The notes below the pieces were generated by a model. That model worked only from the letters and a program-made list of their open reading frames with translations, did no database searches and was not told where the DNA came from. A stretch of 51,469 bases of DNA, taken from the IMG/VR virus record IMGVR_UViG_3300005663_000061, positions 1 to 51,469 of that record, one strand, 5' to 3'. This DNA is from a virus. The position numbers were made by a program, and so were the translations under genes. Below are positions 21,959 to 51,147 of the stretch, one piece after another; position 1 is the stretch's first letter, and every line of letters starts with the position of its first letter.

Positions 21959-22699
21959 TCACGGATACGTCTGGATGTTCTTCATCAGTCTATTGCCAAG
22001 ACAGTGTTTCATGATGTTAAGTGTTACTCTAGCATCACTTTCACACCTGTCTACAATCATGTCCATTGCTTCTGTGTGTGCTGATGTACCAATGGTTTCT
22101 TTCTGTGCAGCCTGCCATACCGCATCAGGTACATCCATCTTCTGTTCATCCAGGCCAAGCACCTTGGCAACCACCTTCATGCTGCTCGACCTAAGCTTCA
22201 TGCCGCGCCAGCCCTTGTAGAACCACATTGGATCTATATGTAAACCAGGTTCTATCTTCCGTTCATCATTGAGGATGAGGCGCGTTTGTAGAAATGATAC
22301 ATCAAAGCCCTTGGAAAAGTACCCACACGATATCCAATGGCGTTCAACCTCGTCTCTGATAGCAACAGCCAACTGCCCATCGTTATTAAGCGAGCCCCCC
22401 ATGTTCTGATCAATCCGGTACGTTGTGATTTTCCCTGACGGATAGGACAGAATGCTACCACAGAGTAGGCGTCCAAAATCTGCTTTAAGGCCCGTTGTTT
22501 CAAGATCGTACACGGCGAGAAATGGATCATCATTGTGGCTGTTTTCGTACTCTCTTGCAAGTTCCCTCCGAAGTTCCCTCCGAAGTTCTCTTACCTTGTA
22601 CTCGGTGATACCAAGTACTTCAGCAAGGTCCGATCTGATTAGAAGGCTGTACTTCTTTGCCTTGGCTATGAGTGAGTCGGTCATCCATGATTCAGTCAT
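21959..22699 (-). CDS. DnaQ-like DEDD 3'-5' exonuclease with N-terminal HTH-like segment
   Basis: The ATG overlaps the endolysin stop (TAATG). Residues 17-50 form an HTH-like helix pair (LAEVLGITEYKVREL) ending in an in-frame 12-bp duplication that gives RRELRREL. The RNase-H-like exonuclease core follows: AVYDLETTG (D65, E67), KGFDVSFLQ (D133) and ESDARVTLNIM (D222). The family removes 3' ends from DNA or RNA. Placement in the lysis/late block, away from replication genes, is odd. No polymerase partner is encoded. Confidence 0.75.
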   Translation of the reverse strand: MTESWMTDSLIAKAKKYSLLIRSDLAEVLGITEYKVRELRRELRRELAREYENSHNDDPFLAVYDLETTGLKADFGRLLCGSILSYPSGKITTYRIDQNMGGSLNNDGQLAVAIRDEVERHWISCGYFSKGFDVSFLQTRLILNDERKIEPGLHIDPMWFYKGWRGMKLRSSSMKVVAKVLGLDEQKMDVPDAVWQAAQKETIGTSAHTEAMDMIVDRCESDARVTLNIMKHCLGNRLMKNIQTYP

Positions 22700-23082
22700 T
22701 AATAGCTCCACGCACCGGGACGTGGCAGAACACCATCCTCAGAAACGTCTATATGAATAAAGCTCTTTGCAACCCCGATACCACTAGCCCAACACAATAC
22801 AGCAAGGTCAAGCATCTTTCTCCTATCCTTCCCGCCACTGATATGAAGATCAGCGGCTTGCCCAATAGTGTGCGCCGAGTTGACAACACCCCTTACTACC
22901 GGTGATGCATTATACGTGGCGCATCTGTTCCCCGACTTAATGTGAATCGGGCCGTACTCCTCACGCATACGCTCTAGCAGGTTAAGTAGCTCTGAGGATA
23001 CGTCGCCGGGTCTAGTACCATAGCCACAGCCACAGGAACAGGCGAACTCGGACGTGTCAAAGTGATCGGATAAGTCACCCAT
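22699..23082 (-). CDS. Endolysin, peptidase M15-type (PF08291-like)
   Basis: This 127-residue protein contains SGNRCATYNA, then SAHTIGQAADLH (H71, D78) and FIHIDVS (H110, D112), the zinc and catalytic motifs of M15 D,D-/L,D-carboxypeptidase-type lysins. An N-terminal CSCGCGYG segment is typical of this family. There is no signal peptide, so it needs a holin. It has its own promoter (TTGACA-N17-TACAGT) just upstream and GAGGGAGG as ribosome site. Confidence 0.85.
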   Translation of the reverse strand: MGDLSDHFDTSEFACSCGCGYGTRPGDVSSELLNLLERMREEYGPIHIKSGNRCATYNASPVVRGVVNSAHTIGQAADLHISGGKDRRKMLDLAVLCWASGIGVAKSFIHIDVSEDGVLPRPGAWSY

Positions 23083-23131: not shown

Positions 23132-26100
23132 CTAGTTGCCGACGGTGGTGCGGCGACGGATCATTGTGTTGATCTCCTTGTTGGCCGCACTTCGGTATTT
23201 CCCGTAGGTGGACCTTAGCATCTTCGCCTTCATCACGTCCGGTATGCTCTCCCAGCGGGCTGAGCTTATCACCCGTGATAACGCCTGCTTAGCCCTTGCG
23301 TGGTACTTGTCGTAGACGGCATACTCCTCGTTAGTGAGCTTGATGTTCTCGCCGTCAACACCACGAATACCGATGCGCTTGGTGCGCTTGGGCATTGCCG
23401 GTGGCATACCCTCGTAGCCTCTCAGCCGGTCGAACTCACGCTCGACCTCCGTATTAAGCCGTCCAGCAGACACCCCAAGTGGGTTGAATACAGACTGTAC
23501 CGCACTAGCACCTAGTGCAAGCGGACTCTCGGTGGACATGACACCCCAACGTTCGGCTTTCTCACCAAGGGCAGTGGTCCTCGCCGGCAGTGCCCTGCTT
23601 ACGAACGGTATACGGTATGCCAGGGCATCAGGAACGCCCGCAGCCGCGCCTAGCGGCTCTTGTACACGCTGGTACGGGTCAACTGCCTGTGCGACCTTAG
23701 AGAAGAACGTCGGCACGATGGAGCCTGCCATCTGACGGTAGTAGATGGACCCGGCTTGCTCAGGATTAGCAAACGCCTTGGCAAAGGACTCCAGACCATA
23801 GAGGAATGACTTGTCAGTCATGTTGTCTTTGACGATGGCAATGGCCTTGCTAGTCTTGTCATCCGATGCGCCGAACTCGGCAGCATCAGCAGCCAGCCCA
23901 AGGACCGTGCCGAGCGGCTCTAACCGCTGCATCTGGATGTAGGCATCACCGATCTTGATTGAGTATGGACGCCAGCCGGTGGCGAGTAGGTTCTGCCGGT
24001 CAGAGTAGTTGGCAGGCCCGCCTCCGGTGAGACCGCCCATCTTAGCCACGGTGAGCAACGCACCCCATACTGCCGTGCCCATTACGGTAGCGGTTACTTC
24101 TTTGTAGTACTCCTGCGGTGTTAGTTCGCGGCTCTCATACCTGCGCTTCAAACTGCCCCATCGGAGTAGTCCGATTGGGGAGCGAGCAATAGACTGCATA
24201 ACCACGTTCCAGGGGGTCTGCCAGAAGGGGATGACGAGTGTTCCGGGCTTGGCCTCGAAGCCCAGTATTGGAATCCTGACCGGGACTTCCCTCAGACCGG
24301 CGACGAGCCTACCTGCTGGGTGAGTAATCCGCTCAGTGAAGGTTTGGATCTCGGCCTCTTTCTTCATGGCTGCTAGGATGTCTGGGTGGGGTTCGCCGCG
24401 CCTAGATCCCTTTGGGACAATCCTTACTTGGTCCTGACTAAAGGCAACAATCTCATCCATTAGCGAGTCATCAACGCCGTCATAACCACGACGGATAAGT
24501 TCTTCTCGCATTTTGTTTCCGCCTAGCCCATAGCCAATTTCATCTAAAACTTCTCTTGGGGCGGGGTTTTTAATATCAGCAATAACCTCGTAAAGCCTGT
24601 CATTGCTCTTTTTCCCTTCTATTTTGGTATATTTGAGGGCAACATTTTGGTCCCTTGTCAAATATATTCCAGCTACTCTTTGATGTTCTCCTCTCCCTTC
24701 CCGGAGCCCCGCTAAACCAATTGTGGAAGAACCATGATATAACCGTTCGCCAGGGGGAAGCTCCCCCATCAACTCAGCAATCCTGCCCTCGATCTCAGTC
24801 GCCTTGATCTCTTTGTTACGGAATGCCTCATACGCCATGCGGGTTGACGTGTACGCAGCAGCCCGCTGTCCAGCAATGCCCTTGAAGTACAGGTCCATAA
24901 CCTGTAGCATGTTGCCGGGGATGCGAATGAAGCTCCCCAGCTTACCGGGGATTGCAGCCGTGGGATGATCCAGCTTGGTACGCTCAGCATACATCTTCAT
25001 GTGAACGTCGTTGTCGATCAACTCATTACGCCTGGCCTCACTGAACGTAGCACGAAGGAACTTCGGAAGCTGTCTTATGCCGTCTATGGCTGCTCTAAAG
25101 TCGGCACCCATGATCATAGCAACATCAGAGTGTTCTAGTTTAGTTCCCTTCGGGTCTTTGGCGCTCCTTGCAATCTCTACGTGTAGGCCAACCGTCTTCT
25201 CAACATGGTCAACACCCTGCCGCAATGCGTTAGACGATACGTTGACGGCCTGTGTGGTAGGACCAGAGAGTAACCCGTTGATCCAGTACTCCATCATGTA
25301 GTCCCACATCTTGGGAGTGTTGACGGCACGGGATATACGGGACAGCAACTCGGGGTTACCCTCGGACAGCACAGCAAGACTCTTTACCTGCTTGAATACG
25401 TTAGGACCAAGCGACTTCTCTAGTTGCCTCTCAACCTCAACCCACTCGGGGGTGTTCTCCTTTACCGTCCGCATGGCTCGCAGGATGCGACCACCCGTTG
25501 TGCCGGTGCCCATAAGCGGCTCGAATACAGCAGCCTCTTTTAACGCCAGTGCTTCTATCCTCTGCTGTATGATGCTTGCGGTCTCGGCATTACCCTCTTT
25601 CTCTGCCAAGAGCTTCTGTCTTGTCAGGTTAACCTTATCTCTCCAAATGGTGTTTAGCTTGTCACCAAAGCGCAACACATGCCAGTCACTAGCCTCTGCC
25701 AACTGTCTACCTTGGTCGTCAATGCCCATTCTCTGCGCGGCGCGACGCACCATGTCAACCGAGTGTGGACCTTGCTCAACCTGATTCCGTGCCAGCTCCC
25801 GCTGCGCTTCAGGCTCAAGCCGATCCCACATTTCCTTGAACGCCTCGGTACGCACGTCGGATTCGTATGGCGCTGATTCGCGGGCTACTTGCTCGGGGGA
25901 GATCGGCTCCCCAGGCTTAGCTGCCGTTACTTCCGGCTCAACCCCGGCCTTAGCCCTCTTCGCCTCAACCTCTTTAGCATAAGCCTCTGCCTCTGGACGC
26001 ATCTCGGCAAGTTTTCTCTCGGTCTTCCACCCCGGTTCATGGTACTTACCACGAGACAACAGACCAAGTAGACCTATTGTAGTACCGGCAGCAACAGACT

Positions 26101-26791
26101 CCTCTAAGTCGCCACCGTGTATCCCGGTCATGCCGCCGACGAACCCACCAACGGATGCGCCATGTAGCGCCTTGCGTTTGAACTGACTGCTAAGAGTGTT
26201 GAGACCAGCTTCCTCGGCTAAGCCTTGATAAACCTTAGCCTTCATCAACTGCATATCTCCACCGTGAGCGAGCATCGCCTGACGTTTGCTAAGCAGCCGC
26301 TCTGCGGCAGGGGAGACAAACTTGCCACCGGCCCATGCACCAAGTCCACCGAATACTGCACCCTCGGCAGCACCCTTTAGACCGTGGCCTATTGCGGACG
26401 GCAAGCCCTCGTCACCATGACGCACCGCGCTATGTGCGCCGAACCCGAGTGCCGGTCCTAATATCCTTCCACCAAGCGTCTTGGCGGCCATGCGACCACC
26501 GGCAACAGCCCCGCCGCCCCACATGAACGGGGCCATAGACGCCAGCGTTCCCGGTGCAGCACCGAGACCCTCTGTAATCTTCTCCAGCAAGCCCTCTGAC
26601 GTGCCCCCACCGCCCTCTAGGCGTAGACCCCTGGCTGCCTGATTACCCCAGTCTTTAAGGCGCTCTAAGGGGTCGTCAGGGCGATCTCCGGGGATGAGAG
26701 ATTCGAGTAGACCAGCACCACCGGCAACAAGCTCGGGGAACTCTGCCCAGCCGGACCACCAGCCACGACGTAGTGAGTCGAGAAGGGACAC
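23132..26791 (-). CDS. Large virion/ejection protein (1219 residues) with inserted ADP-ribosyltransferase-like domain
   Basis: The N-terminus is Gly/Ala-rich and amphipathic (GLGAAPGTLASMAPFMWGGG; GFGAHSAVRHGDEG), like internal virion proteins that cross membranes. Helical regions follow. Around residues 675-805 lies a different domain: RLYHGSSTIGLAGL, GIYLTRDQNVALKY, NDRLYEVIADIKNP, RRGYDGVDD and DEIVAFSQDQVRIV. This is the layout of ART-like domains in phage polyvalent proteins. Its DNA (about 24370-24770) looks AT-richer than its flanks. The rest ends as a tail- or ejection-like C-terminus. Confidence 0.6.
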   Translation of the reverse strand: MSLLDSLRRGWWSGWAEFPELVAGGAGLLESLIPGDRPDDPLERLKDWGNQAARGLRLEGGGGTSEGLLEKITEGLGAAPGTLASMAPFMWGGGAVAGGRMAAKTLGGRILGPALGFGAHSAVRHGDEGLPSAIGHGLKGAAEGAVFGGLGAWAGGKFVSPAAERLLSKRQAMLAHGGDMQLMKAKVYQGLAEEAGLNTLSSQFKRKALHGASVGGFVGGMTGIHGGDLEESVAAGTTIGLLGLLSRGKYHEPGWKTERKLAEMRPEAEAYAKEVEAKRAKAGVEPEVTAAKPGEPISPEQVARESAPYESDVRTEAFKEMWDRLEPEAQRELARNQVEQGPHSVDMVRRAAQRMGIDDQGRQLAEASDWHVLRFGDKLNTIWRDKVNLTRQKLLAEKEGNAETASIIQQRIEALALKEAAVFEPLMGTGTTGGRILRAMRTVKENTPEWVEVERQLEKSLGPNVFKQVKSLAVLSEGNPELLSRISRAVNTPKMWDYMMEYWINGLLSGPTTQAVNVSSNALRQGVDHVEKTVGLHVEIARSAKDPKGTKLEHSDVAMIMGADFRAAIDGIRQLPKFLRATFSEARRNELIDNDVHMKMYAERTKLDHPTAAIPGKLGSFIRIPGNMLQVMDLYFKGIAGQRAAAYTSTRMAYEAFRNKEIKATEIEGRIAELMGELPPGERLYHGSSTIGLAGLREGRGEHQRVAGIYLTRDQNVALKYTKIEGKKSNDRLYEVIADIKNPAPREVLDEIGYGLGGNKMREELIRRGYDGVDDSLMDEIVAFSQDQVRIVPKGSRRGEPHPDILAAMKKEAEIQTFTERITHPAGRLVAGLREVPVRIPILGFEAKPGTLVIPFWQTPWNVVMQSIARSPIGLLRWGSLKRRYESRELTPQEYYKEVTATVMGTAVWGALLTVAKMGGLTGGGPANYSDRQNLLATGWRPYSIKIGDAYIQMQRLEPLGTVLGLAADAAEFGASDDKTSKAIAIVKDNMTDKSFLYGLESFAKAFANPEQAGSIYYRQMAGSIVPTFFSKVAQAVDPYQRVQEPLGAAAGVPDALAYRIPFVSRALPARTTALGEKAERWGVMSTESPLALGASAVQSVFNPLGVSAGRLNTEVEREFDRLRGYEGMPPAMPKRTKRIGIRGVDGENIKLTNEEYAVYDKYHARAKQALSRVISSARWESIPDVMKAKMLRSTYGKYRSAANKEINTMIRRRTTVGN

Positions 26792-29901: not shown

Positions 29902-32900
29902 TTAACTCCCTGTTGCTTCCAGTATCTTTCTCCCCTGCGGGATGTGACCAATAGAAAGCCCAGTTATCTTTACAATCGTCGGGGCTGCGCTAGAACCGTA
30001 TTCCGGTATGACATATAAACGAATCAGGACACCCTCTACCAGCTTGCGTATGCCCAGCTTGGTTTCACCCTCGGCGTCCGGTATCTGAGTAGTCGGGTAA
30101 TGCGTGACCGTATCATCCCCGGTAGACAAGTAGTGGTCGAGCGTGATGTCCTGAGCCGACTCAATGGACGTCACCCTGTGGAATCCCTCGGTACTCTTGA
30201 ACATATCGCCAACAGCGACCCTGACCTCTGGAACGTTCTCCCAATATGCGTATAGCGTTTTAGTGGCCCCAGGAGCCGTTGTGAACGTGATCGTCTTGGC
30301 GGACGAGGTATAGGCCGTCTGAAGCGTTGAATCAAGGTAGACGCGCGCCTGAGAGCCCAGACAGGGTAGTGTGAAGGTCTTGGTAGACCCGTCGCACTGC
30401 TGTTGAGTAGATCCCGAGCTGGGACCGGCTATCGTCGTACTCCATGCCGTGCCGCTGCCGATCAGGGCAGAGGCGGACATCGCGGCTGTGCCAACAGAAT
30501 CACCGCTAGAATGCCATGCGGAGTCCTCAAGGGACTTGACTTCTACAGCGAGGCGCGGACGATCAGAGCCGTCTCCTACGGTTGCGGCTGAGTACGTTCT
30601 GACAATTAGGCTGTGCAGGGATGTCTTCTGGCCCTCTGGCACAAGGTAGAACTCACCAGTCTCAATAGTTGTGTACCAGTAGTTAGAAAAATAATCCCCG
30701 CCAGTGATCATCTTGTTGGCAGCTAGAGATGAAGTAACAACCGCATCAGTATCAGAAGAGTTGGGATGATAAGAAACTATAACCCGCTGGTCTGACGAGT
30801 CGCTGATTGACACAAGGCTTTTGGGTTCTTCACCAAGGTTGTCACTATCGGATAACACCGGAAGTCCAATCTTGGTTACGGCACCGCTAGACAGACTGAT
30901 CAAGTACCCAACTGGATTAGACTCCGCCGCAAAGAAGAAGTACGCAATCAGGGAGTTCATGGCACGGGAGTAGTCAAGCGAAATTGGCTTGTCTTCTACA
31001 AAGTCGTCGAACTCTGTGATGTCAAACGATGCACCAACCTCAGATGCGCTGATCCCATCTGTCTTCCAAAGCAGCCCGTCAGAGGCTATGAAGTAACAGA
31101 AGTCATCCACCACTACTGGGTTGCTTAGGAACCTGATGTTCTCCTTGATTATGTCAAAGTCCCACGGGTCTAACACGTCACCACGCGGGACAACAGAGCT
31201 GATGTCATTAGTCTCAAACACTACGATGCGACCGTTGACCGGCCTTGAGTCTAAGAACGCCCCCTCGCCATTGGCATCACCAACACCAGACCCAACTCCC
31301 TCAAAGTCGTTGTACGTCTTGGGGGCGGTCCAGCGTATTCTGCGCGGGTGTAATGTCCAGTTTGGCGGGGTTTCATCGTAGTACTTGTATGTGAATCCTG
31401 GGGTTGTCGCGCTCTTTAGAGTAAGAGTAGAGTTCGAGAAGTTAAGCTCGACAACCCCAGTGGAGTAATCAATCTTTCCGCTCTCAAGGCCCATCCCGGT
31501 AATCGTCTCAACCCCCGTATCAAGAAGATCCGTAGTAATGTCACTTCCGTCATTGTCAAGAACGATGGTAATTGTAACGCTACCGGGAACAATTCCGTTG
31601 TGTATCTGCAATAACACAGGGAACACAAAGTCGGTTTCAGTTCCGTCCGCGCCGGGATTGGGAGTCTTGTACTCGTTAGTTACTTCAACCTCTTCATCGG
31701 GGTCAAGCTCCCGAGTACCAATCAGCACGGTATAGCCGTCAAGCACAGAGAACGTAGCTGACCTGTAGATGGGACTTATCGGAACGAACTTCTCGATGTC
31801 CCACCAGTAGTAGGAGTACCGATTCAACACAAGGTTACGGAAGTAGTCTGCTCCACCGTCATACAGGGTCCACATAAGAAACCCAGAGTCCTGCATGATA
31901 TTAGTCGGGGCCTTGGAGGAGCCGGAATCTCCATACTGGTAGATTGGCTCAGCCGCCCATGCCGCATCACCAGCATCGTCTACAAACTCTTCAGTCCAGT
32001 ACACGGCATCCTGGGAGTTACAAACAAATCTCTTGCCAATGGTGTCATACATGATCCAGTTGACATCCTCATCAGAAATTACCGGGATTGACACAGAAAC
32101 CCAAGTTCCAGTTGCGGTGGTTGAGTACCACACCGTTCCATCAGCCTCGACAACGGCCCACTTGTTGCTGCCGTTGAACGCCAACGATTTAATGTCAGAC
32201 GCACCAGTGATTGCCTTCTTGGTAAAGGTTGTTCCGTCACCGTAGTACACACCGTTGGCAACCGTGATTATGAACTGTCCACCAAAGTAGTCAACCTTGG
32301 ATGTCCTGTCACCATCTGTAATGTAAGTCTGCCCACTAATGGTGGTGTCATTGAACGTGCTGCCAGAATCATCCGTGTATCTGACCACAACTCGGTCATC
32401 CGAGTCCCGCCAATAAAGAGCAACCACCCTGCCGGGAGATGCTGAATTCCATGCAGCGGAACACCCCTCGTAGTCGGCAGCCGCCTTGGTATCATTAGCA
32501 GCCCAGGTATACGAATCATCAGGATACATATTCCACGTTAAACCGAATGTATCAGTAGAAAATGCAAATCCCGGCTCACCACCGGCACCAGAAAGATCCA
32601 CAACAGCAGCAAGGTAGGTAGACCCATAAGCCTTGATACTGTTGAATAGTGCCGAGTGGTCGTCGTCTCCGTTTATTGACACCGTTCCCTCGTCAACGGG
32701 CGCGGTGTGAAACGAAACCTTTTCCCATGAATTGTTTCCGGCAATGCCGTAAGACAGGGCAAAGAAGCCACGACCAATGTTGTCTATGCCACCGGCGTCC
32801 TCAAGGTGCGGAAATACCTGAAGATACGAAAATGTAGACGTTGCAAGGAGCGGCTGTCTGTCAAACTGTACACCTTGACCATCAAAGTTGGAATCAGTTA

Positions 32901-35226
32901 TTACCTCGCCGGAATACTTCCAGTCACCTTTCTGAAGAGCGGCAAAGAACGGACCACAGATGTCTTCCTCGTTTATGTTGTCGTTGTTCATCGGGCCACA
33001 GTAGATCAGTCCCGCGTCATACGCTTGGATGTTCAGCTTGTAGTCAGCAATGAACGGGTTGTGGTTGTAGTAGAACGTTGGCGGTAATCCCTGCGTAGAT
33101 GAAAGGGCTTCACCGTACAACGACATATGAGTGTTGTCTGTTACGTGATCAACAAGGTAATAGTCGGAATCAGAAGCGGTGGCCCTGATGAAAACCTTTT
33201 TCGGAACTGTCTCGTTCGCTGTCCCTGTTCCGACAGCGCCATCTGGAGTTGACGTACTGTAGATGTACAAGGTGCTAAACCCAAGGGCGTCAGAATCCCC
33301 ATAGTCCCACTCGTTTACGGCAAGAGAATCAACCGTTCCCTCGGTGTACGTGAACCCGTCAACCTCAACAATGGGCGGGGCCGAGATAGACGGATCAGAT
33401 CCGTCAGTAAGTGTTACATACCACTCGTCAGACGTGCCCCCCTCGGTCCACTTGTACTTGCTTGCGTAAAGATTGAACTCATAGTTGGCAACAATCTCTA
33501 GCTGGATGGTGTCGGGATCTCCATCGTCAGAACGGACATAGATTGTATTTGGAGTAGAATCAGGTCCGTGATTACCAAAGCCCCACTCCTTGTCATTCAA
33601 GCTGCTGACTGTTCCTTTTGTAATAGAATCAGCATCTCCAGTGTATGACCCACCAACCGCAACATATTTTGGTAAGGTAAAAGCACTACCAAGAACAGAC
33701 CCGCCTTGCTGTGCAAGAAAATACTCATTAGTCCCACCAGCAGACGCCGACCAACTATAGCTTGAGCTTGCATAGTAGTGGTTACCGATAATCTCTATCT
33801 TGCGGCCAGTAAGAGATGGGTTGCCGTCTGGTGTTAAAACATAAATCGTATCATACCCAAGGTTGTCTAAGGTCGCATCACCATATCCCCAATATCCTCC
33901 ATGTGGACTAAAAAGTGCAAGCTGCTCTATACTAGCCTTGTTTTGTCTTTTCTCTTCTGCATACAAATATGTGGGGAAACGACTTAGCCCAAGCGCACCG
34001 CTAGATGCCTTGAGATAATATACATCATCTCCGACGGAAGACTGATGCCATGTAAAAATTCCAGCCTGAGTAATGTCCTTGTAGTACCCGACATTAACAG
34101 CACCGTATCCAGCGGTTATGAAAGATTTCCCTGTCGCCACCATCGCACCATCAGGATCACCAGCGTTGCCCCTGTAGTAGACAGTGTCAAAACCAAGGCT
34201 GTCGCTAGATGCGTCTCCGATCCCCCACTCACGGTTTGCAAGAGAGGAAACCGCACCAATAGATATACTATTGGTAGTTGTGAGACTATGGAATGAATTT
34301 CTTATACGCCTTTGATTAAGAGACCATTCTGGAGCATAACTACGGGTTTGAATTCTCATGTATGAAGGAACAGAGGACTCTTGACTTTGGTAGTCAGGAA
34401 CAAATATTGGAACCGTATTGTCTCTCTCGGTAACATAATACTCGTTTGTGCCGTCAATGCTGACGGTCCAATAATGATTAGCGCCAGAAATGTTTATTGA
34501 ATTTGTAAGCGTTGTCCACCCACTACGATCCCCGGATGAGTCTGATGGATCTCCACGCACGTACAAGGCCGTAAAACCAAGAGAGTCTTCATCGCCCCAC
34601 GCGGCAGTATCAGCAATGTCAAGGGAGCCAACTGTTCCCTGGTAAAGAGATACCCTGTCAGAGTTAGCCATGTAGATGCCAAGCAAGGGAACCTCGGCAC
34701 CAGCCAGTGTCGTCATGTAATACTCGTCTGAATCATTTGGGGAAACCGTCCACAGATAAGGAGATCCAGAATATGATGTCCCACTGTTCGCAACCTTTAG
34801 CACCGCCCCGCGATACGACTTCTCTAAGAACTTTGTGCCGCTTCCTGTAGCCTCTGGGCTGCCGGCTGTTAGGGAAATAAAACCATCATCGTGAGTGTCG
34901 CTGAGAATCCCCGGAATGCCGTTGTTAGCCCCATATGGGATATAGGTTGTGAAGTATGTAACCTGATCAGACCCGTAGAGGCCGTTGACAGAATTGATTG
35001 CGTCTCGGATAACGCTTGTCCCTGGCAGAGTCAGGTTGCCCGACATACCAAGCACAAAGTCTGGAGTTTTAACCCAGTCGGGACGTAGCGTTATAGAGGT
35101 ATCAGACCGCGCTGGGATGGCGTTCTCTATGTTAACCATACCGGGGGGCGTTACCTCTCTAGGATGCCTCCTGGCTATGATAGAAGCCTTGTCAAGCGGT
35201 ATGTAGTGGTACTGGACCTTAGACAT
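29902..35226 (-). CDS. Giant tail protein (1774 residues), T7 gp12-like N-terminus and tandem beta modules
   Basis: The N-terminus (VTPPGMVNIENAIPARSDTS) resembles tail tubular protein B of podoviruses. From about residue 100 to 700 a module of about 100 residues recurs, marked by NEYYVT- or EYF-type strands near 165, 262, 400, 500, 600 and 690, each tied to a WGxGD...LGFxTxYVRxxDGDP segment. From about 850 on, the protein contains propeller-like and sandwich-like beta sequence. T7 gp12 is about 790 residues, so this is more than twice as long. It probably forms the tail nozzle with decoration. Confidence 0.6.
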   Translation of the reverse strand: MSKVQYHYIPLDKASIIARRHPREVTPPGMVNIENAIPARSDTSITLRPDWVKTPDFVLGMSGNLTLPGTSVIRDAINSVNGLYGSDQVTYFTTYIPYGANNGIPGILSDTHDDGFISLTAGSPEATGSGTKFLEKSYRGAVLKVANSGTSYSGSPYLWTVSPNDSDEYYMTTLAGAEVPLLGIYMANSDRVSLYQGTVGSLDIADTAAWGDEDSLGFTALYVRGDPSDSSGDRSGWTTLTNSINISGANHYWTVSIDGTNEYYVTERDNTVPIFVPDYQSQESSVPSYMRIQTRSYAPEWSLNQRRIRNSFHSLTTTNSISIGAVSSLANREWGIGDASSDSLGFDTVYYRGNAGDPDGAMVATGKSFITAGYGAVNVGYYKDITQAGIFTWHQSSVGDDVYYLKASSGALGLSRFPTYLYAEEKRQNKASIEQLALFSPHGGYWGYGDATLDNLGYDTIYVLTPDGNPSLTGRKIEIIGNHYYASSSYSWSASAGGTNEYFLAQQGGSVLGSAFTLPKYVAVGGSYTGDADSITKGTVSSLNDKEWGFGNHGPDSTPNTIYVRSDDGDPDTIQLEIVANYEFNLYASKYKWTEGGTSDEWYVTLTDGSDPSISAPPIVEVDGFTYTEGTVDSLAVNEWDYGDSDALGFSTLYIYSTSTPDGAVGTGTANETVPKKVFIRATASDSDYYLVDHVTDNTHMSLYGEALSSTQGLPPTFYYNHNPFIADYKLNIQAYDAGLIYCGPMNNDNINEEDICGPFFAALQKGDWKYSGEVITDSNFDGQGVQFDRQPLLATSTFSYLQVFPHLEDAGGIDNIGRGFFALSYGIAGNNSWEKVSFHTAPVDEGTVSINGDDDHSALFNSIKAYGSTYLAAVVDLSGAGGEPGFAFSTDTFGLTWNMYPDDSYTWAANDTKAAADYEGCSAAWNSASPGRVVALYWRDSDDRVVVRYTDDSGSTFNDTTISGQTYITDGDRTSKVDYFGGQFIITVANGVYYGDGTTFTKKAITGASDIKSLAFNGSNKWAVVEADGTVWYSTTATGTWVSVSIPVISDEDVNWIMYDTIGKRFVCNSQDAVYWTEEFVDDAGDAAWAAEPIYQYGDSGSSKAPTNIMQDSGFLMWTLYDGGADYFRNLVLNRYSYYWWDIEKFVPISPIYRSATFSVLDGYTVLIGTRELDPDEEVEVTNEYKTPNPGADGTETDFVFPVLLQIHNGIVPGSVTITIVLDNDGSDITTDLLDTGVETITGMGLESGKIDYSTGVVELNFSNSTLTLKSATTPGFTYKYYDETPPNWTLHPRRIRWTAPKTYNDFEGVGSGVGDANGEGAFLDSRPVNGRIVVFETNDISSVVPRGDVLDPWDFDIIKENIRFLSNPVVVDDFCYFIASDGLLWKTDGISASEVGASFDITEFDDFVEDKPISLDYSRAMNSLIAYFFFAAESNPVGYLISLSSGAVTKIGLPVLSDSDNLGEEPKSLVSISDSSDQRVIVSYHPNSSDTDAVVTSSLAANKMITGGDYFSNYWYTTIETGEFYLVPEGQKTSLHSLIVRTYSAATVGDGSDRPRLAVEVKSLEDSAWHSSGDSVGTAAMSASALIGSGTAWSTTIAGPSSGSTQQQCDGSTKTFTLPCLGSQARVYLDSTLQTAYTSSAKTITFTTAPGATKTLYAYWENVPEVRVAVGDMFKSTEGFHRVTSIESAQDITLDHYLSTGDDTVTHYPTTQIPDAEGETKLGIRKLVEGVLIRLYVIPEYGSSAAPTIVKITGLSIGHIPQGRKILEATGS

Positions 35227-35893
35227 CCTGTAACGCTCTCCCTATGACTGATCCGGGGCTGGTGATGATGTAGGACGGGTGGTGTGTAACCGCCATTGCG
35301 TCACGGTCGTTCTCTTTAGAAAATGAAAGCCACTCTTTTGCAACACCAAGATCACCAAGCATGCGCCAACCACGAGACGTTGCACGACTCACAATGGAAT
35401 CGTCCCACGCCTCCGGGATCACAGTAGAAGTTGCAGTTGGAGATGTAACTAATTCTGTTGGCTTCTTGTTATAGTAAACGTTGATGGTATATGTCCCGGC
35501 CGGGGTTGGCCACAAAGTTAGGTTGAATCTATTGTTAGCACCAACTCCATCTATAAACCAATAAATCGGAGTACCGCTGCTTGAGCTTCCCTGAGTAAAC
35601 TTGCGATACTGGTCCTCGTTCATCGGATACATCTTATGATTATTTGTATCGTCCTCAAGATCATTTATTCTTGATACATCAGAGGCCGACAACTCATAAG
35701 ACGTAGTCCCACTAGACGTAGTTATCGTAATTGGTGTGGCGCTAAGCTGATCAAATTTAACTTTCGACGCAACCTGAAGGTAAGACTGGTTGACATAACG
35801 CAGTATGCGGATGTCAGAGATCGTCTCCGTGGTCTCACCACCAAGACAGTCCCGCACCATGTCAACCATGTCAGAGGCCGTTAGTCTAGCCAT
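35219..35893 (-). CDS. Tail/head-tail adaptor protein (gp11-like), 224 residues
   Basis: The sequence DIRILRYVNQSYLQVASKV, then TITTSSGTTSYELSASD, and LWPTPAGTYTINVYYNKKP, then IPEAWDDSIVSRAT is the pattern of the phage adaptor/tail tubular A group. These form the ring between portal and nozzle. Its neighbour is the gp12-like giant, the usual partner. GGAG lies upstream, and the stop overlaps the giant gene start. Confidence 0.65.
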   Translation of the reverse strand: MARLTASDMVDMVRDCLGGETTETISDIRILRYVNQSYLQVASKVKFDQLSATPITITTSSGTTSYELSASDVSRINDLEDDTNNHKMYPMNEDQYRKFTQGSSSSGTPIYWFIDGVGANNRFNLTLWPTPAGTYTINVYYNKKPTELVTSPTATSTVIPEAWDDSIVSRATSRGWRMLGDLGVAKEWLSFSKENDRDAMAVTHHPSYIITSPGSVIGRALQDV

Positions 35894-42077: not shown

Positions 42078-42692
42078 CTAACTTGCCTCGCATGATTGGG
42101 TAACGTAATTGTCGTTGTACCACTTGTCGTAAGCGGCACCGTCGAAGTTCAAATAGGCATGTTCTCCGAAGTGTTTATGGGCTGCCATGTCATAATAACA
42201 AGCGGCCTCTACCTCGGTCTTAAAATGCCCAAGAGTTATTTCTTTTCCATTGACTCTAATTTTAGATACCCAATACTTATATTTTGGCTCGCCCTTATAT
42301 TTGCAAACCTTTCTATACACCCCCTTAAAGCGGGATGATGTTGGTTTTCCATTAAAAGACTTCGCGCCACGGGAGTTCCAAGAATTCTGTTGGTTTGTTA
42401 CAATGCGAAGATTTTCTCTACGGTTATCAAGAGTATCATGATTTTTATGATCAACCTGTTCTTTTGGCTTTGCCTTCATAATTAGTCTGTGCATGTACAC
42501 AACCTCATAAGCATAACGCCCATTCGGAAGATTAACCCTAACTGCTGCACGGGCAACAACCCTGTCCCTCAACCTTCGACGCTTTATTTCATTGCTACTC
42601 TCTAGGGCATGCCAACTGTAAGTCATCAGCCAGTCATAATCCTCATCGTCAACCTTAACAACATACCCCTTCGTAAGCTCAATCTCTCTCAT
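42078..42692 (-). CDS. Free-standing HNH/AP2 homing endonuclease
   Basis: This 204-residue protein has an HNH_3-type motif (YMHRLIMKAKPKEQ, then VDHKNHDTLDNRRENLRIV) and an AP2-like DNA-binding domain at about 120-173 (SRFKGVYRK, then GHFKTEVEAACYYDMAA). Such genes move by cutting cognate sites in related genomes. It lies between the capsid gene and the next virion gene. It has its own promoter and leader terminator and a more AT-rich sequence, all signs of an inserted selfish gene. Confidence 0.85.
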   Translation of the reverse strand: MREIELTKGYVVKVDDEDYDWLMTYSWHALESSNEIKRRRLRDRVVARAAVRVNLPNGRYAYEVVYMHRLIMKAKPKEQVDHKNHDTLDNRRENLRIVTNQQNSWNSRGAKSFNGKPTSSRFKGVYRKVCKYKGEPKYKYWVSKIRVNGKEITLGHFKTEVEAACYYDMAAHKHFGEHAYLNFDGAAYDKWYNDNYVTQSCEAS

Positions 42693-45774: not shown

Positions 45775-45906
45775 TTACTCCTCCGTCTCATGGTTCATTA
45801 ATCTTGCCATCTCTCTCACCAATTCGTTATAAATCTGCTCACATGCGTTAACCCGCCCAATAAGCTCACTCCTTTCATCTTCATTGCTGGACAGGAGACG
45901 GCGCAC
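45775..45906 (-). CDS. 43-residue protein overlapping the portal end, GTG start
   Basis: The frame from GTG 45904-45906 gives VRRLLSSNEDERSEL and ends REMARLMNHETEE. Earlier in-frame ATG codons would overlap the portal gene even further. It ends just upstream of the scaffold start and supplies its GGAGGAG site. Its start is uncertain. Confidence 0.4.
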   Translation of the reverse strand: MRRLLSSNEDERSELIGRVNACEQIYNELVREMARLMNHETEE

Positions 45907-48001
45907 CGCCCTGTCCCTGTGGACCAGCACCCATAGGCATAGGTCCTTGTACGCCGGGTGGCGGGCCAGGTGGTCCTGCCATTGGCTGTCCCTGACCTGC
46001 GCCTGCTTGTAGTTGGGCATTGGCAGCTTGTAGTTGCTGATTCTGATTACCCAACTGAGCAATCTGTTGCTGCATCTGTTGCATAGCTTGCTGAATCTGC
46101 TTATAAACTTCAATTTCATTGATTAACTCCGGGTTCAAAGTGTCTTTCTTCCCGACCTCAAACTCTGTCAACATATTGTCCATTGCCACATAGAGACCGT
46201 TCATCAGCTTGGCAGCGATGATCGCACTTGGATTCATCGGGTCAGTCGCCACCTGCGCCATCTGCATCAGCTTGTCGAAGTACGGAATCAGCTTGTCGAG
46301 CAATGCCGTAAGTTCCTGCTTCCTAAGCTGCTTACTCATAGACGAGGACGACACCTTAGTTTCAATGATCACGTCACGCTCTATAGCGCCGTCGGGCCAC
46401 TGGAAGAACTGCTCTACAAGCTGAATCCCCTCCGGGTCTTCCTGCATGGTATAGAACTGTAACCCTTCCGGGTAGAACTGACGGTATCGGGCGAGACAAT
46501 GCTTACTAACCTCGGCAAGCGCAACACGGAATCTCTCAAGCATGATGTACTGTGGCTGCTTGGACTCCTCAATAATCTGGATCTGACCCGTGGCGGTGGG
46601 TCTGTCAATCTGCTCCTGACCAAAGGAGTAATCGGACAGACCGGCCAGCTTGTCAGCCTCACGTTCTAACTGTGCCTCAAGCTCAGGCAGTTGCGTGAAT
46701 TTGTTCTCCAAAGAGATGTCATGAAGCTCATCCTTCTTGATGCTTCCCTCTAAGAACGTCCCGCGCCACACACCGACATCGAGATTCTTTAAGTCAGAAC
46801 CAGGCGGAACAATGACAACCTTGGAGATAGCCAGAGAGGCAGCGTCCAACCGCTGGTTCACTGACGCAGAACGAGCTACATGTAGCGGCTCTAGTATGAA
46901 CGTAAGCGGAACACCAAAGATGCTACCAAGAACAGTCTCGTACTGATGTGCCACAAACGGACGCTTGTACGCATGGTAGAAGTTGTAGATGGCCCTCAGG
47001 ATCACCATGGACGACTTCTCGAAGGTGACGATGATCTCTACGGGCTCCTCTTCCTCATTAGGTGTCCACTTCAAATACGCCTCGCATATCTCGTACTGCT
47101 TGGCGGTGTCGTCTAACTCAAGATCCCTGTCACGCCGCTCAGTCAGCGTCAACAGTCGCTCACGGTCGGCCGCCGGCTCACCAAGGGCGTCCATGATGTC
47201 CTGGTCGCCGTCCTTCTTGTCATAGACCTTGGTCCTGATACGACTCTTGATGGTCGGCTTGGTCATCCAGATACGATGGATAACCCAGTCTGCTGTACGC
47301 ACATCCACGGTGGACATCGGTACGATAAAGTCCTCAAACGGGACCACCTCTGGGAAGGCACCCACGCGGACAGGAACCTCTTCGTCAACCTCCAGGTAGT
47401 ACTTCTCTGTCTTGTCCTTCAGCTTACGAAGAGTAACCTTCTGTTTGTCTAGCTTGCGTATGTTGTACTCATCCAGCGGGCCAAACTCTTCCCCGGTCTC
47501 CTCGTCTGCGTACCCTGTAAGCTCCTTCCATCTGATAATCCGTTCGGTCTCTTGGATGAAAGGAGTCTTCACAACCCCGAACGGGAATGTCTGAAACTGT
47601 TCGATCCACTCTCCGCACAGCGAGCGATACGGGATGTTGTCTGAGATGTAATCATTTAGCTTCTCAACGGCCCGTGCCATGTCTTCTACTACCGGATTAC
47701 GTGGTTTGGCGATAAACAGCACATCCTGCTGGAAGATGGGATTTAACAGACGGGCCGAATTCTGCATCATGCGCTGCCGCGTCAGCGGCATGTCAATGTT
47801 GGAATCACGCGCCTTCAGGTCAGTCCGCTGCCTGCGGGAGTTCGCCTGCTTAGCCCATGACTTACACTTGTCTAACAGCCTGCTGCGCTCACCCTCGGTG
47901 ACAGAAAGCTCTTGCTGAAGGTAGTGCCTTAGCTTGTCTTTCTGATCCCCGGTAAACTTGATCTTTTGAACCGAGTCACGAGGGCCTTCTATATTAGCCA
48001 C
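45881..48001 (-). CDS. Portal protein
   Basis: I chose GTG 47999-48001 (MANIEGPRDSVQKIKF, 706 residues). A TTG at 48013 is also open. Features include a long charged N-terminus (RLLDKCKSWAKQANSRRQRT), the wing core with ADWVIHRIWMTKPT, the YNFYHAYKRPFVAHQYE stretch and the C-terminal crown with Gln/Pro/Gly tail (QMQQQIAQLGNQNQQLQ). Size matches P22/T7-like dodecameric portals. It is the gate through which DNA is packaged and leaves. Confidence 0.85.
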   Translation of the reverse strand: MANIEGPRDSVQKIKFTGDQKDKLRHYLQQELSVTEGERSRLLDKCKSWAKQANSRRQRTDLKARDSNIDMPLTRQRMMQNSARLLNPIFQQDVLFIAKPRNPVVEDMARAVEKLNDYISDNIPYRSLCGEWIEQFQTFPFGVVKTPFIQETERIIRWKELTGYADEETGEEFGPLDEYNIRKLDKQKVTLRKLKDKTEKYYLEVDEEVPVRVGAFPEVVPFEDFIVPMSTVDVRTADWVIHRIWMTKPTIKSRIRTKVYDKKDGDQDIMDALGEPAADRERLLTLTERRDRDLELDDTAKQYEICEAYLKWTPNEEEEPVEIIVTFEKSSMVILRAIYNFYHAYKRPFVAHQYETVLGSIFGVPLTFILEPLHVARSASVNQRLDAASLAISKVVIVPPGSDLKNLDVGVWRGTFLEGSIKKDELHDISLENKFTQLPELEAQLEREADKLAGLSDYSFGQEQIDRPTATGQIQIIEESKQPQYIMLERFRVALAEVSKHCLARYRQFYPEGLQFYTMQEDPEGIQLVEQFFQWPDGAIERDVIIETKVSSSSMSKQLRKQELTALLDKLIPYFDKLMQMAQVATDPMNPSAIIAAKLMNGLYVAMDNMLTEFEVGKKDTLNPELINEIEVYKQIQQAMQQMQQQIAQLGNQNQQLQAANAQLQAGAGQGQPMAGPPGPPPGVQGPMPMGAGPQGQGGAPSPVQQ

Positions 48002-48324
48002 AAGACCCACCAAGCGATTTTAGATGTTCCATGAATTGCCTGATCGCCATTAGGATTTGTCCACCCCTCACACTTAGCAAAATCAGCAGCCCAATGAACC
48101 ACCAACTCAGCAATACCAAGCCAAACGCTCCCAGTTATCAACGCCACAACACCACCATGAATCAGGGAATGAGCGGTTAGCCAATAATACCAACACGGGA
48201 CATATTTCTGACCATCGGGAATCCAGTCCGGTTTATTCTTTCTGCTCTTTAGCTTCGCCATAACATCCGGCTGAAGCGCAAAATCAGCCAGAGCATGTCC
48301 AACAAAAAACAAGAATAAAACCAT
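47989..48324 (-). CDS. DUF3307-like integral membrane protein (111 residues)
   Basis: The start MVLFLFFVGHALADFALQPD lies in the tail of the previous gene. Motifs AHSLIHGG, LGIAELVVHWAADF and HGTSKIAWWVL match the DUF3307 family, known in bacteria and some phages but without an established role. About three membrane helices with conserved His and Asp residues are visible. Its last codons overlap the portal start. Confidence 0.65.
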   Translation of the reverse strand: MVLFLFFVGHALADFALQPDVMAKLKSRKNKPDWIPDGQKYVPCWYYWLTAHSLIHGGVVALITGSVWLGIAELVVHWAADFAKCEGWTNPNGDQAIHGTSKIAWWVLWLI

Positions 48325-49256: not shown

Positions 49257-50879
49257 CTATGTCACACACTCAAGCCCGTAGGCTCTGCCAACCTCGCCGA
49301 CAAACGAATCAAAATAATCAAGGTCGTCTGACTTCTCTATGTCGGGCGATTTACCACGCCAGTACTCCACGTGGTATGCCAAGCTGTCAGCCAGGTTGGG
49401 AGACTTCCCGATAACCTTGCCACCGACAACCTGTAGGTTAATCAACTCCTGGGTCAGCTTGCGCTGTCCCTTGGTGAAGTACACTTGCTGGTTGCGGATA
49501 AACGGCTGTAACGCATCCACGATACGCGACCCCTTGGACTTAGTTCCCGGTTTAACCGGCCTAATCGGGAAGTGTATCCCGCGCTCTATCATGGTTTTCT
49601 TCAAGGACCACTTCAGCGTCTTCTGGAAAGACACGTCTTCGGGACTCACCACATGCGGGTCCCACTCTTGCGCCATGTCCATGATCTTGTTGATCAGGTC
49701 AAACGGCAGGGCGCGGGCAGCCCATGCGTCAAGGACGAAGATAAGTCCGGTCTGCCTGTCATGTCCACAGACGGTGATAGCAGACTCGTCAGTGTTCTTT
49801 CCCTCTCCAGTGGCAGGGTCGATGGTCATGCTGCGGTAAAGTGCCTCTACAGGGCGTACAATGGTGTCTGTGGCCGTCTTGATGAGCACGGCAGGCTTGC
49901 CGAACCGGGTAGTGGTCCAAGAGAAGTTCTTGATGTCTTCCTTGCGGAAGCGGCGCATGTCATCTGAGACCTCAAGGTTGAGATACTGATGCACGAAGTC
50001 GTACTCAGATTCTTTGCGTATGTTGTCCAGGGTATCGTTTGTAAACCCACAATCACGCTCCTCGTCGTAAGGCCATATGGGCTCACCGTCCTCAAGAATG
50101 GTTACTTTCCCGATGCTCGCAAGAAAGTCCCTATAACGATGGTCAACATAGCAACCCAGGAGTAACACCTCATGGGTCTGACAAATGATTCCATCGGGGT
50201 CAAGCTCCCAATTGTAAAACTCTCCGGGCCATCTAGTCCCGACACCAACTCGAAGATCACGCGCCGGGCGGACAAACAGCGGGTTAGACCGCTTAATAAA
50301 GTTTACAGCCTTGGACTGTTGAACCTCGGAGTCGATCATCGTCTCGTCAATTAAATCGTCAAGCACATGGTCTGTAAAGTGACCACCAATTATTCTTGAA
50401 TCCGTGCCGTGAGCCTCAATAGTACCCTCACGATAGTTGCCGACGCGAGGAAGCCTGAGATAGTTCGCCCTGGACCGACATTTAGGATCACCAAAGTTAA
50501 GAACCCTATCAGGAAAAAAATGCTCCAGATTTTCACTAATGGCAAATGTATTTGTAACAGCCTCTAATGTTTTCTCTGCGTTCTTCGACGACGCCATCAT
50601 GTACAGGATTCTGGCCTCTGGGTCAGTCATCGCCCGCCAGGTGAGGAGCGATGTCCCAAAATAGCTGGTTTTCAGATGACCGCGCGGGGTTATGATAATG
50701 AACCTGCGCTTACCAGCAAGATACCTTGTCATAAACCACTCGTCCATCGCCTTGTGGAATGGGTTGTTAAGCCACGTGAGACCGCACATGAGGATGCCAG
50801 TCCACAGCGGGCTGCTAGTACACAGCTCTACTATCTCGTCATGGTCCTGCCCCACTCTAGCGCATTTCTCGCAATACAA
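49257..50879 (-). CDS. terL: Terminase large subunit
   Basis: The start is probably TTG 50877-50879 (MYCEKCARVGQDH, 540 residues), nine bases after GAAGAGG. Another TTG at 50897 lies before that site. The ATPase has a variant Walker A (TPRGHLKTS, about residue 65-73) and Walker B HVLDDLIDE (about 171-179). The nuclease follows with MTIDPATGEGKNTDESA and LIFVLDAWAARA acidic residues. The enzyme cuts concatemers and drives DNA through the portal. Confidence 0.85.
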   Translation of the reverse strand: MYCEKCARVGQDHDEIVELCTSSPLWTGILMCGLTWLNNPFHKAMDEWFMTRYLAGKRRFIIITPRGHLKTSYFGTSLLTWRAMTDPEARILYMMASSKNAEKTLEAVTNTFAISENLEHFFPDRVLNFGDPKCRSRANYLRLPRVGNYREGTIEAHGTDSRIIGGHFTDHVLDDLIDETMIDSEVQQSKAVNFIKRSNPLFVRPARDLRVGVGTRWPGEFYNWELDPDGIICQTHEVLLLGCYVDHRYRDFLASIGKVTILEDGEPIWPYDEERDCGFTNDTLDNIRKESEYDFVHQYLNLEVSDDMRRFRKEDIKNFSWTTTRFGKPAVLIKTATDTIVRPVEALYRSMTIDPATGEGKNTDESAITVCGHDRQTGLIFVLDAWAARALPFDLINKIMDMAQEWDPHVVSPEDVSFQKTLKWSLKKTMIERGIHFPIRPVKPGTKSKGSRIVDALQPFIRNQQVYFTKGQRKLTQELINLQVVGGKVIGKSPNLADSLAYHVEYWRGKSPDIEKSDDLDYFDSFVGEVGRAYGLECVT

Positions 50880-50880
50880 G

Positions 50881-51147
50881 CTAGATGGCCTCTTCAACTA
50901 TAGCTAAGATTTCATTCTCTTGAACCATTATATAGACTTCATCATCGATAGATAAATCAATCCCAGAAAATCTACCGATAAGAACAGACTGTTCCGGTGT
51001 TACGCCTGATTTTGGCCCAGTAAAAACAACCGTTGCCCTTATTGGTTTCTCACCGGCAATCTCTGGAAGGATAATACCGCTTTTAAGTTCCCGACAAACG
51101 GCGTCCCTCTTCAACAAAACTCTATTACCTAGCAGTTTTATGTTCAT
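50881..51147 (-). CDS. GroES-like co-chaperonin
   Basis: This 88-residue protein has the Cpn10 pattern: MNIKLLGNRVLLKRDAVC, then SGIILPEIAGEKPIRATVV and a conserved strand ending NEILAIVEEAI. The mobile loop is the GIILPE region. Phage GroES homologues such as T4 gp31 help host GroEL fold the capsid protein. Its ATG overlaps the upstream gene. It ends exactly where the terminase ribosome site lies. Confidence 0.8.
   Translation of the reverse strand: MNIKLLGNRVLLKRDAVCRELKSGIILPEIAGEKPIRATVVFTGPKSGVTPEQSVLIGRFSGIDLSIDDEVYIMVQENEILAIVEEAI

What the first reader, a model, noticed from the sequence alone, without database searches (positions are those of the whole stretch)
24362..24790. ADP-ribosyltransferase-like domain inserted in an ejection protein
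Around residues 675-805 the sequence changes from Ala/Gly-rich structural helices to YHGSS...GIYLT...YDGVDD...DEIVAF, an ART pattern, with lower GC. Such a domain could be injected with DNA and modify host proteins at once, as T4 Alt does.
Basis: partly seen in the sequence, partly recalled or inferred. Interest (0 to 1): 0.65.

Follow-up and report, generated by a model that had tools for sequence, protein, structure and literature searches.

The report
ADP-ribosyltransferase domain inside phage ejection protein
In an uncultured short-tailed bacterial virus, a small enzyme domain of a known toxin-like family (one that attaches ADP-ribose to its targets) sits inside the large protein the virus probably pushes into the cell with its DNA, so each particle may deliver a ready-made host-modifying enzyme; this is a recognised strategy in a new arrangement.

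Summary
Residues 683-795 of a 1,219-residue minus-strand protein (window 23132-26791) match Pfam ART-PolyVal (PF18760; 32.2 bits, cut-off 31.2), invisible when the whole protein is scanned. An AlphaFold2 model (pLDDT 77, pTM 0.70) is closest to an ART-fold domain in the solved cyanophage A4 pre-ejectosome (9K3A) and to PARPs. The putative catalytic triad H686-Y710-E780 is intact. The flanks belong to the marine-podovirus "internal virion protein" family (phrog_6651). Fourteen relatives have 56-102 residues between two anchors where the window has 183, an excess equal to the ART domain. GC3 is 0.36 inside versus about 0.60 in the gene, beyond what amino acids explain, although one other phage gene is as low. 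Delivery and enzyme activity are inferred. ARTs in virion-delivered phage proteins are known (polyvalent proteins, vRNAPs, MuF fusions, A4 pre-ejectosome); new here is the insertion into a loop of this ejection-protein family. It is a variant of a known kind.

The parts
23132..26791 (-). Carrier gene: 1,219-aa internal virion (ejection) protein, phrog_6651 family
   Evidence: phrog_6651 E=1.2e-18 on aa 904-1028; tblastn to 'internal virion protein (D)' of marine autographiviruses
24407..24745 (-). ART-PolyVal domain core, aa 683-795
   Evidence: PF18760 over gathering score; AF2 model and fold matches to 9K3A chain B and PARPs
24734..24736 (-). Putative catalytic His686 (strand 1, YHG)
   Evidence: H in all 15 aligned ART-PolyVal domains
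24662..24664 (-). Putative catalytic Tyr710 (strand 2, GIY)
   Evidence: Y in 11, W or F in 4 of 15
24452..24454 (-). Putative catalytic Glu780 (strand 5, DEIVAF)
   Evidence: E in 12 of 15 aligned domains
24749..25429 (-). Upstream carrier segment, aa ~455-681, conserved in relatives up to the insertion point
   Evidence: blastp/MAFFT to KM23_C739, CRP113, ProddE and others
23657..24394 (-). Downstream carrier segment, aa ~800-1045 (PHPDIL..TFT..PF.QTP.N..LTGGGP)
   Evidence: best-conserved part of the carrier family

Best explanation
The gene encodes an internal virion (ejection) protein of a divergent podovirus into which an ART-PolyVal ADP-ribosyltransferase domain has been inserted at a loop between two conserved helical segments. 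Shown by computation: ART family membership, ART fold, an intact H-Y-E triad, carrier family and insertion boundary. Inferred: the protein is stored in the head, expelled into the cell with or ahead of the DNA, its C-terminal half reaches the cytoplasm as proposed for T7 gp16-C, and the ART then uses NAD+ to ADP-ribosylate one or more host macromolecules (a protein is most likely) in the first moments of infection, before any phage gene is expressed.
For: PF18760 over threshold; positive controls with the same pipeline score 33-136 bits. Top fold match 9k3a_B, cyanophage A4 pre-ejectosome (Foldseek E 6e-4, prob 1.0; Z 8.3 over 112 residues), then PARP2/tankyrase/diphtheria toxin; an earlier, weaker model gives 33 BFVD hits at E<=1e-3, many named PolyVal ADP-ribosyltransferase. 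A sequence profile of the domain family independently ranks 9k3a_B first (E 0.015). H/Y/E aligned across 15 phage-type domains. Carrier: phrog_6651; 65 phage records. Insertion: 183 residues between D633 and T817 versus 56-102 in 14 relatives; KM23_C739 aligns 455-684 and 807-976 with only 24 of its own residues between. Same-family ART domains lie in virion RNA polymerases, MuF fusions and giant phage proteins. Literature: PMC5512222, PMC9503650 (ARTs in virion-delivered proteins), PMC8954989 (gp16-C modelled in host cytoplasm).
Against: No virion proteomics, host or enzymatic data exist. The PF18760 score is only just over the cut-off. Foldseek E-values are modest and VIA Z is near 8. Single record, no close relative found, so purifying selection on the domain cannot be tested. 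The carrier has no detectable sequence homology to T7 gp16, so its topology in the cell is by analogy. Iyer et al. give D, not E, as the strand-5 residue of this family.
Confidence: 0.72

Rival explanations
1. The ART domain is real but no longer catalytic: it has been kept as a structural or binding module of the pre-ejectosome.
For: In the A4 pre-ejectosome homologue the strand-5 Glu appears absent (segment DTTLVINPDAV), and that domain is ordered in the solved particle, showing that such domains can be part of the core.
Against: In the window H686, Y710 and E780 are all kept, and relatives without the domain show that the core does not need it.
Confidence: 0.15
2. The domain acts on nucleic acid or nucleotides rather than on proteins (DNA/RNA ADP-ribosylation, NAD+ depletion or an anti-defence role).
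For: The ART superfamily contains DNA- and RNA-modifying members and NADases; the weak phrog_5470 (RNA 2'-phosphotransferase, an ART-fold enzyme) hit at E 0.1 and KptA structures in the fold list fit this. The carrier may contact the entering DNA, by analogy with T7 gp16-C.
Against: The best family match is ART-PolyVal, predicted to modify host proteins (PMC5512222); PARP and tankyrase folds rank above KptA.
Confidence: 0.25
3. The domain works during assembly or before ejection, or modifies phage proteins, and is not delivered to the host cytoplasm.
For: No delivery data; the topology of phrog_6651 proteins in the cell is unknown.
Against: Family members occur in several unrelated virion-delivered carriers (PMC9503650), which fits delivery better.
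Confidence: 0.12
4. The match is a chance resemblance in a helical structural protein.
For: PF18760 score is within about 1 bit of the cut-off.
Against: Independent profile, fold, active-site and indel evidence agree.
Confidence: 0.03

Closest known systems
ART-PolyVal domains of phage polyvalent proteins (PF18760; Tox-ART-HYD2 clade; Iyer et al. 2017, PMC5512222)
   Same: Same Pfam family; H in strand 1, Y in strand 2, acidic strand-5 residue; embedded in a large phage protein presumed to be injected
   Different: The carrier has no second recognisable effector domain; the strand-5 acid is Glu, where the paper gives Asp; embedded inside an ejection-protein family not reported for it in the passages read
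Cyanophage A4 (Anabaena phage A-4L) pre-ejectosome protein A4L_27, PDB 9K3A chain B (Hou et al. 2025, doi 10.1073/pnas.2423403122, known here only by citation)
   Same: ART-fold domain (aa 1419-1602) in a pre-ejectosome protein; top hit by fold and by sequence profile
   Different: No carrier homology to the window protein; C-terminal position; strand-5 Glu apparently not conserved; below PF18760 cut-off
N4-like virion RNA polymerases with ART (Roseovarius Plymouth podovirus 1; Dinoroseobacter phages)
   Same: ART of the same kind in a virion-delivered podovirus protein
   Different: Carrier is a virion RNA polymerase
T4 Alt
   Same: Works-like model: head-packaged, injected ADP-ribosyltransferase
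   Different: R-S-E active site, separate clade (PMC5512222); own protein, not a domain of an ejection protein
phrog_6651 internal virion proteins (P-SSP7 gp16, Syn5 gp45, KM23_C739, CRP-113)
   Same: Homologous carrier on both sides of the insert
   Different: All 14 examined have 56-102 residues, and no ART, where the window has 183

Membership tests
ART-PolyVal (PF18760) | Profile score at or above the curated gathering score (31.2 bits) | tested here: met
   32.2 bits, E 2.2e-7; 31.8 bits
ART-PolyVal (PF18760) | His in strand 1 and Tyr in strand 2 of the ART fold | tested here: met
   H686 and Y710, aligned over 15 domains; predicted strands at both sites
ART-PolyVal (PF18760) | Acidic catalytic residue in strand 5 (Asp according to PMC5512222) | tested here: inconclusive
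   E780 at the position where 12 of 15 aligned members carry Glu; D779 precedes it
ART superfamily | ART fold | tested here: met
   AF2 pLDDT 77.1, pTM 0.70; 9k3a_B Z 8.3 over 112 residues, PARPs Z 7.4-7.9
ART superfamily | NAD+-dependent ADP-ribosyl transfer | not testable with these tools
   needs enzyme assay
Polyvalent proteins | Several disparate effector domains in one polypeptide | tested here: not met
   Only the ART is recognised; remaining pieces of the protein give no Pfam domain
Internal virion protein family phrog_6651 | Profile match and homology on both sides of the insert | tested here: met
   phrog_6651 1.2e-18; both flanks align to KM23_C739 and others
T7 gp16 (phrog_342) | Sequence homology to T7 gp16 and N-terminal transglycosylase | tested here: not met
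   hhalign prob 0.1; T7 gp16 hits phrog_342, not 6651; no transglycosylase domain found
T4 Alt family | R-S-E active site | tested here: not met
   H-Y-E at the corresponding positions; clade definition from PMC5512222
Virion-delivered effector | Present in virion and transferred to host | not testable with these tools
   metagenomic record, no isolate; only family context

The most novel reading that the evidence does not exclude
A complete, active ART domain has been inserted into a loop of the DNA-ejection machine itself, so that the conduit doubles as an enzyme acting at the site of DNA entry on the cytoplasmic face, in a few copies per virion. Relatives with other N-terminal domains (L048, L049) suggest that phrog_6651 ejection proteins are a general platform for exchangeable effector cargo.
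Probability: 0.4. Interest if true: 0.6.

Novelty: new variant of a known kind. Interest (0 to 1): 0.42.

Why it matters
It ties a named enzyme family to a specific loop of a podovirus ejection protein and gives a small, clean construct (about 120 residues, three predicted catalytic residues) to ask what virion-delivered ARTs modify at the start of infection, a question the polyvalent-protein literature left as prediction. Uninserted homologues in culturable marine phages provide natural controls.

Tried and rejected
Whole-protein Pfam scan missed the domain. phmmer of the single domain against the PDB gave only weak hits with no bearing on ARTs. Close relatives of the whole protein, of the domain and of TerL in IMG/VR: none confirmed; portal relatives are 21-26% identical, and P0001 has no match in the five of their records that were searched. 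T7 gp16 homology of the carrier: not detected. T4 Alt membership: rejected on active-site class. An AF2 model of carrier plus insert was dropped because the only eligible relatives aligned poorly across the insertion. Transmembrane helices in the carrier: none at a simple Kyte-Doolittle cut-off. L048/L049 N-terminal HELGH and ART-like motifs are below Pfam thresholds and were not used as evidence. The 1,774-aa neighbour was scanned in pieces for effector domains: none.

Full report
What is there. The window is a 51,469-base virus record from IMG/VR of a podovirus-like phage. On the minus strand it has TerL (49257-50897), an SU10-type portal (45881-48013) and SU10-type adaptor (35219-35893), then several unknown genes, the 1,219-aa protein of the finding (23132-26791), an endolysin (22699-23082) and an RNase H-like gene (21959-22711). 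The phage is very divergent: TerL is at most 28% identical to the phages listed and the portal has no tblastn match in the phage collection.

The domain. Scanned alone, the segment matches PF18760 ART-PolyVal at 32.2 bits, E 2.2e-7, just over the gathering score; scanned within the whole protein it is missed. Controls through the same scan score as expected: F116 gp60 136 bits, Microbacterium phage Schubert MuF fusion 51 bits, Pseudoalteromonas phage Y3 34 bits. An alignment of 15 phage ART-PolyVal domains shows His of YHG in all, an aromatic residue in the strand-2 G-x-Y motif in all (Y in 11) and Glu of the strand-5 motif in 12; the window has H686, Y710, E780. From established knowledge of PARP1 (H862, Y896, E988) these correspond to the H-Y-E triad.

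Fold. With a seven-sequence alignment AlphaFold2 gives pLDDT 77.1 and pTM 0.70. Foldseek's best solved match is chain B of 9K3A, the cyanophage A4 pre-ejectosome (E 6e-4, prob 1.0), followed by PARP2 and other ARTs; VIA-align gives Z 8.3 over 112 residues for 9k3a_B 1419-1601 and 7.4-7.9 for PARPs and tankyrases. An earlier, poorer model (pLDDT 64.5) also put 9k3a_B first in Foldseek, ahead of PARPs, and gave 33 viral-model hits at E 1e-3 or better, many named PolyVal ADP-ribosyltransferase. A sequence profile also ranks 9k3a_B first in the PDB. The Z values are moderate by the tool's own calibration; the agreement of fold, profile and active-site positions carries the claim.

The carrier. Its C-terminal part matches phrog_6651 'internal virion protein' and 65 phage records, mostly marine T7-like podoviruses where it is often called internal virion protein (D). 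That label needs care: P-SSP7 gp16 was 'assigned by synteny and size', T7 gp16 itself belongs to phrog_342, and profile comparison finds no kinship between the two families. A review lists P-SSP7 among phages with gp16-like proteins, notes that its inner core disappears after attachment, and models T7 gp16-C in the host cytoplasm (PMC8954989). So 'ejection protein' is a well-supported family inference, not a demonstrated property of this protein.

The boundary. In KM23_C739 the window's residues 455-684 and 807-976 align to 516-720 and 745-901, with only 24 residues between. Between two conserved anchors (D633 and T817) the window has 183 residues, and 14 relatives have 56-102 (one of them, S45C18, is poorly anchored). 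The excess over the typical ~70 is about 113 residues, the size of the ART core. Downstream, PHPDILAAMKKEAEIQTFT lines up with NPTPEILAQADAFGARGTFT of ctQWt234 and NPTDDILTASTERAKEMTFT of MEP301, so the domain sits right at that loop. GC3 in the domain is 0.36 against an expected 0.62 for its amino acids under the rest of the gene's codon use (none of 1,000 simulations as low), consistent with later acquisition; but another gene of the phage has GC3 0.37, so foreign origin is not proven.

Mechanism. Shown: family, fold, triad, carrier family, boundary. Inferred: packaging, ejection, cytoplasmic location, ADP-ribosylation of a host macromolecule early in infection. The inference rests on the repeated occurrence of this ART family in virion-delivered carriers (vRNAP, MuF fusion, giant proteins; PMC5512222, PMC9503650) and on the A4 structure. 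The T4 Alt comparison is sound as a functional analogy only, because Alt is an R-S-E enzyme.

Novelty. ARTs in virion-delivered phage proteins have been predicted since 2017 and one ART-fold domain is already visible in a solved pre-ejectosome. New here is an intact-triad ART-PolyVal inserted into a loop of the phrog_6651 ejection-protein family. Two metagenomic relatives of the carrier (L048, L049) have long extra N-terminal regions, one with a phrog_2579 match, which hints that the family carries other cargo too.

Noticed in passing
L049:330-6200 (IMGVR_UViG_3300025669_001086): 1,956-aa carrier relative with a long N-terminal extension: HELGH motif at aa 375, phrog_2579 'ParB C-terminal domain' match at 553-701, and RGT...EEIIVLN ART-like motifs, before the phrog_6651 part; possibly a polyvalent ejection protein.
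   Followed up: partly
L048:1086-6239 (IMGVR_UViG_3300014208_000018): 1,717-aa carrier relative with an N-terminal HELGH zincin-like motif (aa 546), below Pfam thresholds.
   Followed up: partly
L054:20116-25269 (Anabaena phage A-4L, A4L_27): The ART-fold domain of the solved A4 pre-ejectosome keeps YHGT and GTYF but seems to lack the strand-5 Glu (DTTLVINPDAV), so it may be inactive.
   Followed up: partly
window 29902-35226: 1,774-aa minus-strand protein directly after the SU10 adaptor gene, with no Pfam domain even when scanned in 200-aa pieces.
   Followed up: partly
window 42078-42692: HNH endonuclease gene sitting between structural genes of the head module.
   Followed up: no
L031 (IMGVR_UViG_3300017911_001692): ART-PolyVal domain (80.7 bits) inside a 3,510-codon open frame of a 45.6-kb viral contig; the closest ART relative found (about 35% identical).
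   Followed up: no
L037 (PQ492659.1, Limnohabitans phage DC33): Record is filed under Inoviridae although it is 39 kb with a 9.4-kb ART-containing gene; the taxonomy looks wrong.
   Followed up: no
L003:1-2388 (AP013544.1): A clear homologue of the ejection protein lies in a stretch without annotated gene at the end of this record.
   Followed up: no
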